Source of the DNA: Nostoc sp. LEGE 12450
Lineage (GTDB): Bacteria; Cyanobacteriota; Cyanobacteriia; Cyanobacteriales; Nostocaceae
Reading direction: 5' to 3'
NCBI RefSeq assembly: GCF_015206895.1
Contig: NZ_JADEXU010000010.1
Location: forward strand, 25,313-89,312
Length of the DNA stretch: 64,000 bases
This document shows positions 49,198 to 53,221 of the stretch, in pieces. The translations under genes and the position numbers were made by a program. Numbering within the stretch: position 1 is the stretch's first letter; each line of letters starts with the position of its first letter. The notes below the pieces were generated by a model. It saw nothing but the letters and a program-made list of their open reading frames with translations. It searched no databases and was not told the DNA's origin.

Positions 49198-49537
49198 CGA
49201 GTTTTGCTTATCCTAAAATTGTAGCGATCGCACTGGACTATGACGTTAGTTCTTTGTCATTTGTCATTAGTTCTTTTTTCCTTACTTCCGACTCTTTATA
49301 AGAACAAATGTACTAAATGCTATGCTATAATTCCGATACATTGATGTTGAAATCATAGTAAAAAATTATGATCTGGTTGCTTGCTTTCCTGAGTGCCAAA
49401 ATTGACGGCATTAGTTGAGTGTAAGCGCTATAGCAACATCGATGAAGAAAGCAGGTACGAGAGTTTAAAATAATTGAATCCCAAACTCGACTCGGTGCTA
49501 CTAATTAACGTTGAAAGGCATTGAAGTCTATTTTTCC
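49198..49537. other. Region upstream of dnaX
   Basis: A divergent 340-base region with one HIP1-like site, STRR-like GTCATTTGTCATTAGTTCTT near 49255-49280, and no recognisable RNA or small gene. It presumably contains promoters for dnaX and for the CHAT-paralogue transcript. Confidence 0.35.
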
Positions 49538-52500
49538 ATGTCTTACGAACCCCTGCACCATAAATATCGCCCCAAAAGTTTTGCTGAACTGGTGGGACAA
49601 GAGGCGATCGCTACCACCCTCACGAATGCGATCGGCACATCCAAAATCGCCCCCGCCTATTTATTTACAGGGCCAAGAGGTACGGGGAAAACTTCTAGTG
49701 CCCGGATTTTAGCTAAATCTCTCAATTGTCTCAAAAGCGATCGCCCCACTGCTGAACCCTGCGGCGTGTGTGATGTTTGTCAAGGAATCACCAAGGGTTA
49801 CGCTTTAGATGTAATTGAAATCGATGCTGCTAGTAACACTGGTGTCGATAATATCCGCGAGTTGATTGAAAAAGCCCAGTTTGCCCCTGTGCAGTGTCGT
49901 TACAAGGTTTATGTAATCGATGAATGCTTAACTGGAGATTCTCTGGTTTTGACTGACGAGGGACTTCAAAGAATTGATGATCCCAAAATTAAAGATAAGA
50001 AGGTTCTGAGTTACAACGACTCATTAGGTAAGTGGGAATTCAAGAAAGTTGTCAGGTGGTTAGATCAAGGGGAAAGACAAACCCTGGTTATCAAAACAAC
50101 TAATAGAGAAATTAGATGTACGGGTAATCATTTAATTAGGACAAATCAGGGATGGCTACCAGCAAAGGACGTAAAAGAAGGAGTGAAGATACTATCCCCT
50201 GTGAATGCGGATGCGGCATCCTCATTTACAAATTTGGTATCGATGGACGCACCCGAAGGTTTGTTAGCGGACACCAATTTAAAGGCAATACATCTGGGCA
50301 AAAATCATACGACTTGGAATCTATCCTTAAACAAGCCGAATTACTCCGACCTTTCTGTGCTTGCGGGTGCGGAGAAAAGCTCGATATCCCAACCTTTTTA
50401 CAAAAAAAAGGACGAGGAATCATCAGCATCCAGTCTCGTTGGGAAAAACATCCATATAAAAAAGGACACGGAATCTGGAAACTTAGAACAGAAAAGTTCC
50501 TTGCGGATGCGGCAGTTATCCAGCCAAACGCACTTGGACTTATCTACGGAACCTTACTTGGAGATTGCTCTATCAGTTATCCCAATAAATACAGCAGATT
50601 CCCCAGATTGTGTTGGACACACTCAGAAAAGCAGCAAGAATGGTTGGAATACAAAGCTTATCGCCTTGAAGAATTGCGTCCAAAACTGCGAATTACAGGT
50701 AACAAAGGATACGGGAACATATCAGTTACCTGTAACACCGCTTGTCATCCCCAACTCAAAGATGTCTTGGAAATCGTTAAACCAAATGGGGATAAAAAGC
50801 TCGTCTCTATGGACTGGCTTAATCGAATTACCCCAGAAGGACTTGCTTGGTGGTACATGGATGATGGCTCACTCAGTCTCAGTCCACAAGGAAGTCCACA
50901 AATTCAATTGCATACAGAAGGATTCTCCGGCGCTGAAAATCAACTCATCGCCAGTTGGCTTACAGCAATGGGATATTCAGCCGCAACAAAGTTTTATACC
51001 AGAAGTAGTACAGGCAAAACATACCACTACATTCAGATGGGCGCAAGCACCAGTAGAAAATGGCTCGCAGACCTTAAACAATATTCCATTCCCTCGATGG
51101 ATTACAAGTTTGGAGACAGTCGAATCTGTTCACCTCGCTGGGGTTGAGCGAGTTTACGATATTGAAGTAGCAGATAATCATAACTTTGTAGCAAACGGGC
51201 TTTTGGTACATAATTGCCACATGCTCAGTACCCAAGCATTCAATGCGCTACTTAAAACCCTAGAAGAACCACCGAGACACGTAGTTTTTGTATTGGCGAC
51301 AACAGACCCGCAACGGGTGTTACCAACGATTATTTCGCGCTGTCAAAGGTTTGATTTTAGACGTATTCAATTAGAGGCGATGGTTAAGCATTTAAGTGCG
51401 ATCGCATCTTATGAAAGCATTCATATTTCACCCGAAGCTGTAACCCTGGTAGCCCAACTTTCTCAGGGAGGGTTGCGAGATGCCGAAAGTTTGCTCGATC
51501 AATTGGGTTTGTTAGCGGGTGAAGTTACACCAGATAGAGTTTGGGATTTGGTGGGGACGGTAAGCGAACAGGACTTGTTGGGACTTCTAAATGCGATCGC
51601 TCAAGATAAACCCGAAGCAGTTCTTGACAATACCCACAAAATTCTCGATCGTGGTCGAGAACCCCTAACTCTTCTGCAAAATCTCGCCGCATTCTACCGC
51701 GATTTACTCATAGCCAAAACAGCACCGAACCGCCACGATTTGGTTGCTTGTACTCAGCAAACCTGGACGGCGTTGGTTGAGTTTGCTCAATACTTCGATA
51801 TGACCATGATTTTAGCAGGACAGGAACACCTGCGAAAAGCTGAAGTACAAATTAAAAACAGCACTCAGCCGCGTTTATGGTTGGAAGTAACATTACTAGG
51901 ATTGTTACCCAGTGCGACGACAAATATTCAACCACAAGCCCCAAATATCGCGCCGCGAGTTATCCCACCTGCTGTATCTCCAAGCTATCCTCCAGCAGTT
52001 ACCCAAAATCATGCAGTCTCCTCTTTACCGATAGCGGAACCGCAAACAAATCATAATTCTACACTTCGACAAGGCTCTGTTACCACAAACCATCATGTAG
52101 CGATTGCCCAAAATGAGCCTGTCACTTCATCTGACGCAGTTGAACAGCAAACAAATCACAATTCTGCTCCTAAATCAGTTTCACCACCAACCCCAGAACC
52201 TGTTGCTGTTCCTGTACCACCTGCGAACATTGAACCAGTAACTTCAGAAGTTGTTGGCGAAGCAGAATATGACTTAACTCAGGTTTGGCAACAGGTGCTT
52301 GCTAACCTCCAGCCAAAATCAAGGCAAGAAATGCTGCGTCAAATGAGCCAACTTATAGAGTTCGACGGTGTTATGGCTCGAATTGCTATCAAACAGGCAT
52401 GGTATGACAAGGGTAAATCTTATCTACCGATGATTACGGCAGCTTTCCAGCAGACTTTCCAGCGTGAAATCCAGATAAATATAGAAAAAGGAATTTCTTC

Positions 52501-52936
52501 AAACTCTACTTCAGCTAAAAAAAATCCTCCGCCAAAAGACTCTAGTCGCGTTCAGCAACCAGCTACTCCTAGTTACAATCAGCAAATTTCGCCTCCAGCG
52601 CCAGTACCACAGCCAGCAACGCCAGCGCCACTAAGAACCGAGCCGCTAGCAAAAAATGGAAATGGTGCAAATGGAAATGGGGCAAATGGAAACGGGGTAA
52701 ATGGAAACGGGGCAAATGGAAATGGGGCAAATAGAAATGGGGCGCAAACTTTGCCTCCACCGCCACAGCGAACACCCGCACCTGATTGGGAAATTGATGA
52801 AGTTGCGATCGCTGCTCAACGTCTAGCAGAATTCTTCAACGGACAAATTATCCGCTTTGGAGATGATTCAACAGAATTCTCCGATACCATAGCTACACCT
52901 GAGTGGGTAGAAGAATCAGAAGTCGATGATGAATAA
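49538..52936 (+). CDS. dnaX: DNA polymerase III subunit gamma/tau, interrupted by an intein
   Basis: Clamp-loader ATPase. The start is taken at ATG 49538 (MSYEPLHHKYRPKSFAELVGQ); an earlier TTG at 49511 adds nine odd residues. The precursor has 1132 residues, of which 430 (residues 130-559) are an intein, leaving a 702-residue host protein. Host motifs: Walker A GPRGTGKTS, zinc-binding cysteines (C-x8-CGVCDVC), and Walker B split by the intein (VYVIDE before, CHMLS after). Then follow sensor 1 (LATTDPQRVLPT) and the Arg-finger segment SRCQRF, all intact once spliced. The C-terminus is a low-complexity Pro-rich region with NGNGANGNGA repeats and a final conserved-looking segment (WEIDEVAIAAQRLAEFF). 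Replication clamp loading; partner of HolA. Confidence 0.94.
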   Translation: MSYEPLHHKYRPKSFAELVGQEAIATTLTNAIGTSKIAPAYLFTGPRGTGKTSSARILAKSLNCLKSDRPTAEPCGVCDVCQGITKGYALDVIEIDAASNTGVDNIRELIEKAQFAPVQCRYKVYVIDECLTGDSLVLTDEGLQRIDDPKIKDKKVLSYNDSLGKWEFKKVVRWLDQGERQTLVIKTTNREIRCTGNHLIRTNQGWLPAKDVKEGVKILSPVNADAASSFTNLVSMDAPEGLLADTNLKAIHLGKNHTTWNLSLNKPNYSDLSVLAGAEKSSISQPFYKKKDEESSASSLVGKNIHIKKDTESGNLEQKSSLRMRQLSSQTHLDLSTEPYLEIALSVIPINTADSPDCVGHTQKSSKNGWNTKLIALKNCVQNCELQVTKDTGTYQLPVTPLVIPNSKMSWKSLNQMGIKSSSLWTGLIELPQKDLLGGTWMMAHSVSVHKEVHKFNCIQKDSPALKINSSPVGLQQWDIQPQQSFIPEVVQAKHTTTFRWAQAPVENGSQTLNNIPFPRWITSLETVESVHLAGVERVYDIEVADNHNFVANGLLVHNCHMLSTQAFNALLKTLEEPPRHVVFVLATTDPQRVLPTIISRCQRFDFRRIQLEAMVKHLSAIASYESIHISPEAVTLVAQLSQGGLRDAESLLDQLGLLAGEVTPDRVWDLVGTVSEQDLLGLLNAIAQDKPEAVLDNTHKILDRGREPLTLLQNLAAFYRDLLIAKTAPNRHDLVACTQQTWTALVEFAQYFDMTMILAGQEHLRKAEVQIKNSTQPRLWLEVTLLGLLPSATTNIQPQAPNIAPRVIPPAVSPSYPPAVTQNHAVSSLPIAEPQTNHNSTLRQGSVTTNHHVAIAQNEPVTSSDAVEQQTNHNSAPKSVSPPTPEPVAVPVPPANIEPVTSEVVGEAEYDLTQVWQQVLANLQPKSRQEMLRQMSQLIEFDGVMARIAIKQAWYDKGKSYLPMITAAFQQTFQREIQINIEKGISSNSTSAKKNPPPKDSSRVQQPATPSYNQQISPPAPVPQPATPAPLRTEPLAKNGNGANGNGANGNGVNGNGANGNGANRNGAQTLPPPPQRTPAPDWEIDEVAIAAQRLAEFFNGQIIRFGDDSTEFSDTIATPEWVEESEVDDE
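49925..51214 (+). mobile_element. DnaX intein, 430 residues, with splicing motifs intact
   Basis: Splicing blocks are recognisable: A with Cys1 (CLTGDSLVLTDEGLQRIDD), B with T-x-x-H (TGNHLIRTNQGWL), and F/G (VERVYDIEVADNHNFVANGLLVHN) ending His-Asn before Cys+1 of CHMLS. Insertion is in the DnaX Walker B, VYVIDE/CHMLS. A DnaX intein is known from Synechocystis sp. PCC 6803. Residues about 76-408 are where an endonuclease domain would normally sit in frame. Here the in-frame peptide is Ser/Thr/Lys/Asn-rich, without LAGLIDADG motifs or predicted order. The endonuclease is encoded in another frame of the same DNA (50152-51147). Splicing would then rely on the two halves alone. Confidence 0.92.
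50152..51147 (+). CDS. LAGLIDADG homing endonuclease encoded out of frame inside the DnaX intein
   Basis: A 331-codon frame, offset from dnaX by two bases, runs from ATG (overlapping the GGA TGG codons of intein residues 76-77) to TGA 51147, inside the intein's C-terminal splicing segment. Its product looks fully coding: two Cys-rich knuckles (C17-x-C19-x-C21...H41; C69-x-C71-x-C73...H106), LAGLIDADG motif 1 GLIYGTLLGDCSIS (residues 129-142, Asp138) and motif 2 GLAWWYMDDGSLS (230-242, Asp238), spaced as in two-motif enzymes. A weak Shine-Dalgarno, TAGGA at 50137-50141, is ten bases upstream. Intein endonucleases normally share the intein's frame. I infer that this is an independent gene cleaving the empty dnaX site; activity is unproven. 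Confidence 0.88.
   Translation: MATSKGRKRRSEDTIPCECGCGILIYKFGIDGRTRRFVSGHQFKGNTSGQKSYDLESILKQAELLRPFCACGCGEKLDIPTFLQKKGRGIISIQSRWEKHPYKKGHGIWKLRTEKFLADAAVIQPNALGLIYGTLLGDCSISYPNKYSRFPRLCWTHSEKQQEWLEYKAYRLEELRPKLRITGNKGYGNISVTCNTACHPQLKDVLEIVKPNGDKKLVSMDWLNRITPEGLAWWYMDDGSLSLSPQGSPQIQLHTEGFSGAENQLIASWLTAMGYSAATKFYTRSSTGKTYHYIQMGASTSRKWLADLKQYSIPSMDYKFGDSRICSPRWG
52659..52745. repeat. Tandem 12/15-base repeat encoding NGNGA
   Basis: GGAAATGGGGCAAATGGAAA repeats about six times with small changes near the dnaX 3' end, coding for N-G-N-G-A/V units. A size-variable low-complexity linker. Confidence 0.75.
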
Positions 52937-53221
52937 TGCTCTTATATTGAATTAAAAACTGGGAAATGAATAAAACTTATTTGATGCGGAAAATAATCAA
53001 AGCTGATGTTACTAATTATATTTTACTCATGATTTGAGTTTCAATAAAATACTACAAAGCTATATCCAACTTAGATTTTTAGTTTTACTACTAGTTAAGT
53101 TTATTTTTTTAATTCGTTAGTTGTTTGTTTGCACCATAAAATATGCTATACAACCGATTTTTGTTGAGTAATTTATTCTTTGGAAGTTCCATATAGTTGC
53201 TTCTAAAGTGATGGATAATCG

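What the first reader, a model, noticed from the sequence alone, without database searches (positions are those of the whole stretch)
49925..51214. A DnaX intein whose homing endonuclease is encoded out of frame inside it
dnaX is split in its Walker B motif (VYVIDE / CHMLS) by an intein with all splicing residues present: Cys1, T-x-x-H in block B, and terminal His-Asn before Cys+1. Yet the in-frame middle has no endonuclease motifs and is a low-complexity Ser/Thr/Lys/Asn peptide. The same DNA read two bases off carries a 331-codon gene with two LAGLIDADG motifs (GLIYGTLLGDCSIS, GLAWWYMDDGSLS) and two CxCxC knuckles. It starts just after block B and ends inside the C-terminal splicing block. 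So about 1 kb is open in two frames: one kept open only to let the host protein be read through, the other for an apparent endonuclease. Homing enzymes normally sit in the intein's own frame; an independently translated, nested endonuclease would uncouple homing from splicing and could be expressed separately. A DnaX intein at a comparable site exists in Synechocystis sp. PCC 6803; whether that one shares this layout I cannot check.
Basis: partly seen in the sequence, partly recalled or inferred. Interest (0 to 1): 0.93.

Follow-up and report, generated by a model that had tools for sequence, protein, structure and literature searches.

The report
Intein hiding an out-of-frame homing endonuclease
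The dnaX gene of this cyanobacterium and many relatives carries a predicted self-splicing protein insert whose own DNA, read one base out of step, holds a second conserved gene that likely makes a DNA-cutting enzyme which would copy the insert into new hosts; selection acts on that second gene, while the stretch in step with dnaX shows no selection on its protein beyond being kept free of stop signals.

Summary
The 430-codon dnaX intein (49925-51214) has all splicing residues; a 331-codon I-SceI-like LAGLIDADG gene (50152-51147) lies inside it in the -1 frame. Related loci gave 75 distinct intein DNAs, none with a stop in the dnaX frame; 49 are full length and 42 of these keep the nested gene open. 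In the overlap the freely varying base moves to the nested gene's wobble position. Nested dN/dS is about 0.16-0.19; the in-frame middle evolves as stop avoidance alone predicts. The nested ATG, inside a conserved Gly-Trp codon pair, is present in 42 of 42. AlphaFold folds the nested frame (pLDDT 86) but not the in-frame middle (about 25). In the window's genus, empty, full and shortened sites coexist. Inteins in viral helicase and terminase genes repeat the layout, in both offsets. Best reading: an intein with a separately translated, overlapping homing gene. Splicing, translation and cutting are untested. The nearest print I could read (ShiLan, 2025) lacks a splicing domain; a 1998 paper I could not obtain may describe the Synechocystis case.

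The parts
49538..52936 (+). dnaX ORF (clamp-loader gamma/tau) interrupted by the intein; N-extein 49538-49924, C-extein 51215-52936
49925..51214 (+). Intein, 430 codons, Cys1 ... His-Asn, followed by Cys+1; no stop
49925..50215 (+). N-terminal half of the splicing domain (intein residues 1-97, blocks A and B)
   Evidence: AlphaFold pLDDT mostly above 85; PDB match 7cfv Spl DnaX mini-intein 2.9e-40
50152..51147 (+). Nested gene in the -1 frame: I-SceI-like LAGLIDADG homing endonuclease, 331 aa plus stop
50152..50154 (+). Nested start codon ATG, made by the intein codons GGA-TGG (Gly76-Trp77) after block B
   Evidence: ATG in 42 of 42 intact copies; only this and a Trp codon invariant among third positions of codons 1-76 in 37 gap-free sequences
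50200..50214 (+). First CxCxC knuckle of the nested protein (residues 17-21)
   Evidence: C17, C19, C21 invariant in 30 aligned proteins
50356..50370 (+). Second CxCxC knuckle of the nested protein (residues 69-73)
   Evidence: C71, C73 invariant, C69 at least 90%
50536..50577 (+). LAGLIDADG motif 1 GLIYGTLLGDCSIS (acid D138)
   Evidence: D138 invariant in 30 aligned proteins
50839..50877 (+). LAGLIDADG motif 2 GLAWWYMDDGSLS (acids D237, D238)
   Evidence: D237 and D238 invariant in 30 aligned proteins
50216..51091 (+). In-frame middle of the intein (residues 98-389): unfolded spacer, no detectable selection beyond stop avoidance
   Evidence: pLDDT below 50 throughout
51145..51147 (+). Nested stop TGA, made by the intein codons GTT-GAG (Val-Glu) before block F
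   Evidence: 26 of 42 intact copies stop at this site and 10 of 42 at Tyr-Asp just downstream
51092..51214 (+). C-terminal half of the splicing domain (residues 390-430, blocks F and G)

Best explanation
This is a dnaX intein, predicted to be self-splicing, whose homing endonuclease is encoded as a separate overlapping gene in the -1 frame, under purifying selection of its own and likely translated from its own ATG, while the matching stretch in the dnaX frame shows no selection beyond staying free of stops. The ribosome that makes DnaX would read the overlap as an unfolded spacer of about 290 residues between the two halves of the splicing domain, which would then excise the whole insert. Other ribosomes would start at the internal ATG in the Gly-Trp codons after block B and make an I-SceI-like enzyme that ends at a stop also lying in splicing-domain codons. 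The enzyme would cut intein-free dnaX, and repair would copy the two-frame unit across. Shown: anatomy, selection on each frame, the conserved ATG, empty, full and shortened sites within one genus, and recurrence of the layout in viral inteins. Inferred: splicing, internal initiation, cutting, homing.
For: Same layout and offset in all 49 distinct full-length inteins. Wobble shifts from intein position 3 to position 2 inside the overlap and back at its ends. Nested dNN/dSN 0.19, 0.18, 0.16. In-frame dNN/dNS 0.62-0.78 against 0.64-0.71 simulated without selection on in-frame residues. Stop avoidance, 0 against 5.8 or 12.4 expected. ATG in 42 of 42; its Gly codon is GGA in 41 of 41 (the 42nd is Ala, GCA), against 444 of 1626 Gly codons in flanking exteins. 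I-SceI/I-WcaI family by profile and fold; nested pLDDT 86.1, in-frame middle about 25. Genus of the window, 35 genomes: 17 empty, 7 full-length, 8 shortened, 3 unresolved. Viral inteins with out-of-frame LAGLIDADG genes.
Against: No expression, splicing or cleavage data. GGA is also invariant in the 7 broken and 26 shortened copies, so shared descent contributes. A Shine-Dalgarno-like 4-mer lies upstream in only 21 of 42. 7 of 49 full-length copies have nested stops. Extein and intein trees largely agree and tests for transfer are ambiguous, so recent homing is not shown. Some viral cases rest on weak splicing-domain scores.
Confidence: 0.85

Rival explanations
1. The nested frame is reached by ribosomal -1 frameshifting inside the intein, giving a DnaX-N/intein-N/endonuclease fusion rather than a separately started protein.
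For: The offset is -1 in all cyanobacterial copies. Metagenome proteins P0060 and P0066 do join DnaX-N, the intein N-half and a related LAGLIDADG enzyme in one frame.
Against: In the window a stop in the nested frame (TAG 50137-50139) lies five codons before the ATG, so a shift would have to fall in a very short stretch or later. The ATG is conserved in 42 of 42, which a frameshift would not require. No slippery-site search was run.
Confidence: 0.08
2. The nested gene is a dead relic: the enzyme was active in the ancestor, and today only the splicing element persists.
For: 7 of 49 full-length copies have nested stops and 26 of 75 are shortened. Trees do not prove recent transfer.
Against: 42 of 49 are open; nested dNN/dSN is 0.19 even among the 71 closest pairs; D138, D237 and D238 are invariant in 30 aligned proteins. 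Decay does occur in some lineages but is not the state of the window's copy.
Confidence: 0.05
3. The insert is a group I or II RNA intron with an ordinary intron-encoded endonuclease.
For: The closest solved relatives, I-SceI and I-WcaI, are intron-encoded.
Against: No Rfam match at E up to 1 in 49400-53000. Intein_splicing matches both ends. The dnaX frame is open in 75 of 75, and TxNH and terminal HN hold in 75 of 75 (Cys1 and Cys+1 were part of the search motif).
Confidence: 0.01
4. The second frame is a chance open frame or an assembly error.
For: None found.
Against: Searches exclude it.
Confidence: 0.01

Closest known systems
Spl DnaX and Ssp DnaX inteins (Spirulina, Synechocystis)
   Same: Same host gene and same splicing-domain family: the solved Spl DnaX mini-intein (7cfv) is the best PDB match, E 2.9e-40. 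In print they are used as splicing tools (passages of PMC3103413 and PMC3443213).
   Different: Those passages describe a 136-residue mini-intein (Spl) and a 150-residue Ssp DnaX intein and mention no second-frame gene. The 138-144-codon forms seen here look like products of losing the nested gene.
ShiLan insertion in a phage DNA methylase (Arsenault, Gosselin, Gogarten 2025, PMC11855218; abstract, passages and sections 18, 22, 24 read)
   Same: Out-of-frame endonuclease inside an insertion whose host frame stays open; in-frame product predicted with poor confidence.
   Different: HNH, not LAGLIDADG; no splicing domain detected by its authors; GTG start; phage hosts. Here a full intein splicing domain surrounds the nested gene.
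I-SceI / I-WcaI (LAGLIDADG_2, PF03161)
   Same: Fold and motifs of the nested enzyme.
   Different: Those are intron-encoded; this one adds an N-terminal third with two CxCxC knuckles and lies out of frame in an intein.
Ordinary bifunctional inteins with an in-frame LAGLIDADG domain
   Same: Splicing domain with an endonuclease in its middle. Examples in hand: L029 and viral L140, L141, L142 and others.
   Different: There the enzyme is part of the intein polypeptide; here it is not.
Fractured genes (split inteins with a separate endonuclease gene between; Dassa 2009, recalled and seen only in reference lists)
   Same: The endonuclease is its own ORF between the intein halves. Viral L125, L126 and L127 show this with related enzymes in DnaX.
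   Different: In the window the host frame is continuous across the enzyme gene, so splicing would be in cis.

Membership tests
Class 1 intein | Cys1, block B TxxH, terminal His-Asn, nucleophile at +1 | tested here: met
   Window and 75 of 75 distinct inteins; Cys1, Cys+1-His and a loose His-Asn ending were required by the search motif, so TxNH is the independent part
Class 1 intein | Matches the intein splicing-domain profile | tested here: met
   PF14890 E 2.8e-14, 53.7 bits against a cut-off of 35.8
Class 1 intein | Splices | not testable with these tools
   Needs expression of the precursor
LAGLIDADG_2 homing endonuclease | Profile match, two motifs with acidic residues, fold | tested here: met
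   PF03161 7.5e-22; D138, D237, D238 invariant in 30 proteins; Foldseek 6x1j E 1.5e-12, target TM 0.74. A strict regex found motif 1 in 41 of 42 and motif 2 in 34 of 42 intact copies
LAGLIDADG_2 homing endonuclease | Cuts the uninterrupted allele | not testable with these tools
   Needs a cleavage assay
Bifunctional (full-length) intein | Endonuclease domain in the intein's own reading frame | tested here: not met
   In-frame middle has no endonuclease match and no fold
Mini-intein | No endonuclease coding sequence within the element | tested here: not met
   Nested gene present
Split intein / fractured gene | Host gene broken into separate ORFs | tested here: not met
   One continuous dnaX ORF
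ShiLan-type out-of-frame endonuclease insertion | Endonuclease encoded out of frame while the host frame stays open | tested here: met
ShiLan-type out-of-frame endonuclease insertion | No splicing domain | tested here: not met
   Intein_splicing present
Group I or II intron | Catalytic RNA fold | tested here: not met
   No Rfam match at E up to 1

The most novel reading that the evidence does not exclude
Two-frame inteins are a distinct, old and recurrent class of mobile element. The homing gene is overprinted on the splicing element and takes its start codon from block B (Gly-Trp) and its stop codon from block F. The composite moves as one unit between unrelated genes and between viruses and cyanobacteria. 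Because the overlap is entangled with an essential gene, frameshifts in the homing gene are purged, so it can decay only by stops or whole-codon deletions: a natural gene-overlap stabiliser.
Probability: 0.5. Interest if true: 0.88.

Novelty: new variant of a known kind. Interest (0 to 1): 0.8.

Why it matters
Full-length inteins are usually described as one polypeptide that both splices and cuts. Here the two jobs share DNA but not protein, so the cutter could be expressed separately from splicing and need not fold inside the splicing domain. It is also a natural case of about 1 kb of bacterial DNA carrying a mobile gene overprinted inside a replication gene, with a clear readout of which frame selection sees. 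Because inteins in viral helicase and terminase genes repeat the layout, annotation that searches only the host frame is likely to misfile such elements as inteins without endonucleases. The invariant internal ATG makes a direct test possible of whether and how ribosomes start inside a conserved essential gene to serve a selfish element.

Tried and rejected
Rejected: sequencing error or chance; RNA intron; in-frame endonuclease hidden by divergence (no Pfam match; unfolded); selection on the in-frame residues: the raw dNN/dNS below 1 looked like weak purifying selection until transition bias was simulated.

Ambiguous: horizontal transfer. The Dendronalium (L033) intein is nearer to Nostoc inteins than its extein is: in the ten L033-Nostoc pairs listed, nested third positions are 0.85-0.89 identical and extein third positions 0.55-0.59; mean residual +2.5 SD over 11 pairs, while Anabaena azotica (L053) goes the other way, -1.75 SD. 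Exteins reject L033 inside a nine-row group (p 0.0005), but do not reject L033 with all 11 Nostoc rows (p 0.52), and the intein does not reject L033 outside Nostoc (p 0.72). The intein rejects L048 with L050 and L051 (p 4e-7), but exteins do not reject L048 with L049 (p 0.13); exteins do not reject L058 with L007 and L035 (p 0.37). These groups were chosen after seeing the trees. L046 and inteins not of 1290 nt were left out of the trees (43 rows). A first extein comparison without gap handling gave misaligned outliers and was replaced.

Not telling: Shine-Dalgarno-like 4-mers, 21 of 42 intact, 5 of 7 broken, 20 of 26 shortened. The in-frame peptide is more hydrophilic than synonymous resampling (z below -2) in 24 of 42, with extein codon usage as the reference. 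PCC 6803 was not identified by name (2 of 5 genomes in the genus of G041 match, one of them only a trace). A third viral scan with the L113 enzyme found only L113 and L114.

Literature: nine searches listed no paper whose title or abstract describes an out-of-frame endonuclease in an intein; the library holds only open-licence PMC papers. Passages only: PMC3443213, PMC3103413, PMC8899391, PMC3229294, PMC3403396; PMC1654191 was searched for four terms without a match. Gorbalenya 1998, Non-canonical inteins, is not held; PMC11855218 cites it beside a remark on overlapping reading frames, so it may describe the Synechocystis DnaX case. The original Ssp DnaX report was not looked up.

Full report
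What is there. dnaX (49538-52936) is interrupted after VYVIDE by a 430-codon insert (49925-51214) that matches the intein splicing domain across its two ends. The nested ORF 50152-51147 is in the -1 frame: the second base of each dnaX codon is the third base of a nested codon. It matches LAGLIDADG_2 (7.5e-22), and by profile and fold it is a relative of I-WcaI and I-SceI (AlphaFold pLDDT 86.1 on a 30-sequence alignment). Its N-terminal third carries two CxCxC knuckles.

Conservation. After there were 109 loci and the window. Both intein junction motifs were found in 90 of these 110. The other 20 are, by my reading, unrelated endonuclease loci (17), one contig that ends inside the intein (L055) and two whose N-junction my motif missed (L085, L090). 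The 90 gave 75 distinct intein DNAs: 49 full length and 26 shortened. Of the 49, 42 keep the nested ORF open and 7 have stops in it. None of the 75 has a stop in the dnaX frame, and all 26 shortened forms are a whole number of codons; a dnaX-breaking copy would not be expected to survive, so this shows constraint on dnaX. The most distant intact copy in this set is 51% identical in protein (L076). Some public records list the nested product as a hypothetical protein.

Which frame does selection see? On 37 gap-free sequences, mean column entropy by intein codon position is 0.57/0.38/1.22 in the N-terminal splicing half, 0.39/0.99/0.56 in the overlap and 0.16/0.08/1.09 in the C-terminal half. 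In ten-codon bins the most variable position becomes position 2 from codon 91 and returns to position 3 from codon 401; third-position entropy already falls to 0.76 and 0.53 in codons 71-80 and 81-90, where both frames are constrained. Counting differences by their effect on each frame, nested dNN/dSN is 0.19, 0.18 and 0.16 and intein dNN/dNS is 0.62, 0.74 and 0.78 in three divergence bins holding 660 of the 666 pairs. A simulation with nested selection, no selection on in-frame residues and stops barred in both frames gives intein dNN/dNS of 0.64-0.71 at transition bias 4, the observed bias being about 4.1. So the in-frame residues show no detectable selection beyond being stop-free. Stop avoidance is strong: 0 seen against 5.8 or 12.4 expected in 42 sequences. 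AlphaFold, with 22 inteins aligned, leaves residues 98-389 unfolded between two well-folded splicing halves.

Start and stop. The nested ATG is formed by the Gly-Trp codons just after block B and is present in 42 of 42 intact copies: 41 use GGA for Gly, and in L069 Gly is replaced by Ala (GCA) with ATG kept. In the flanking exteins 444 of 1626 Gly codons are GGA. In the 37 gap-free sequences only this third position and that of a Trp codon are invariant in codons 1-76. Against this, GGA is equally invariant in the 7 broken and 26 shortened copies, so descent contributes. The nested stop lies in Val-Glu-like codons before block F in 26 of 42 and in Tyr-Asp in 10 of 42. Use of this ATG by ribosomes is inferred.

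Homing signs. In the window's genus (35 genomes, the window's own included) 17 have an uninterrupted dnaX site with 96-100% identical flanks, 7 a full-length insert, 8 a shortened one, and 3 could not be resolved in the listed rows (my count, whose list was cut). Two of the 7 (G009, G019) carry nested stops. This mix of empty, occupied and decaying sites is what a homing cycle predicts. Direct evidence of transfer is only suggestive.

Beyond cyanobacteria. Two scans of viral contigs gave 15 and 73 loci. My script examined 74 of these 88; I left out 13 apparent repeats and L178. It flagged 10 in-frame inteins, 6 out-of-frame, 1 with an open host frame but no C-terminal motif, and 57 others that I take to be mostly free-standing. 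By eye the one without a motif (L115) is also out-of-frame, and L120, counted among the 57, is in-frame. Of the seven out-of-frame cases, Intein_splicing passes Pfam's cut-off in the host frame of L110, L112, L130 (ResIII/helicase hosts, -1 offset) and L171 (terminase-like by eye, +1 offset); it is below the cut-off in L115 and L137 and absent in L113, both offsets +1. The splicing domains of L112, L110 and L130 are 45, 43 and 35% identical to the window's, so a related splicing domain with the same offset sits in an unrelated gene in viral contigs. L130 also has ATG at Gly-Trp; L110 does not and would start upstream. The +1 cases suggest at least one independent origin.

What is known. PMC11855218 reports an out-of-frame HNH in a phage insertion without a splicing domain, the nearest print I could read. 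The DnaX-intein passages I read treat these inteins as splicing tools. Gorbalenya 1998 was not available and may have priority for the Synechocystis example.

Noticed in passing
L125, L126, L127, L139 (viral contigs): Viral DnaX genes broken into DnaX-N plus intein-N, a LAGLIDADG ORF and intein-C plus DnaX-C with overlapping or abutting ends (three frames in L125, L126, L139; two in L127; in L139 the enzyme is only a remnant): split inteins with the enzyme as a middle gene.
   Followed up: partly
P0060, P0066, P0067 (metagenome proteins): P0060 and P0066 join DnaX-N, intein-N and a related LAGLIDADG enzyme in one frame and end right after the enzyme; P0067 is a DnaX with a short intein that keeps an apparent in-frame remnant of the enzyme's C-terminus. 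The contigs could not be fetched.
   Followed up: no
L029 820-2574: A Nostoc uracil-DNA-glycosylase-like protein (named by eye) carries an intein with an in-frame LAGLIDADG domain, 33% identical to the nested enzyme over residues 126-245.
   Followed up: no
L093 2914-3942, L096 2956-3867: Free-standing LAGLIDADG ORFs in Bacillaceae lie among motility-type genes (named by eye), 27-32% identical to the nested enzyme.
   Followed up: no
L115 2444-3979, L137 2480-3844: Nested enzymes in viral terminase-gene inteins have long basic C-terminal tails, so the host frame must stay open for 455-512 codons.
   Followed up: no
window 52650-52740: The tau-like C-terminal part of DnaX contains an Asn-Gly-rich repeat (NGNGANGNG).
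   Followed up: no
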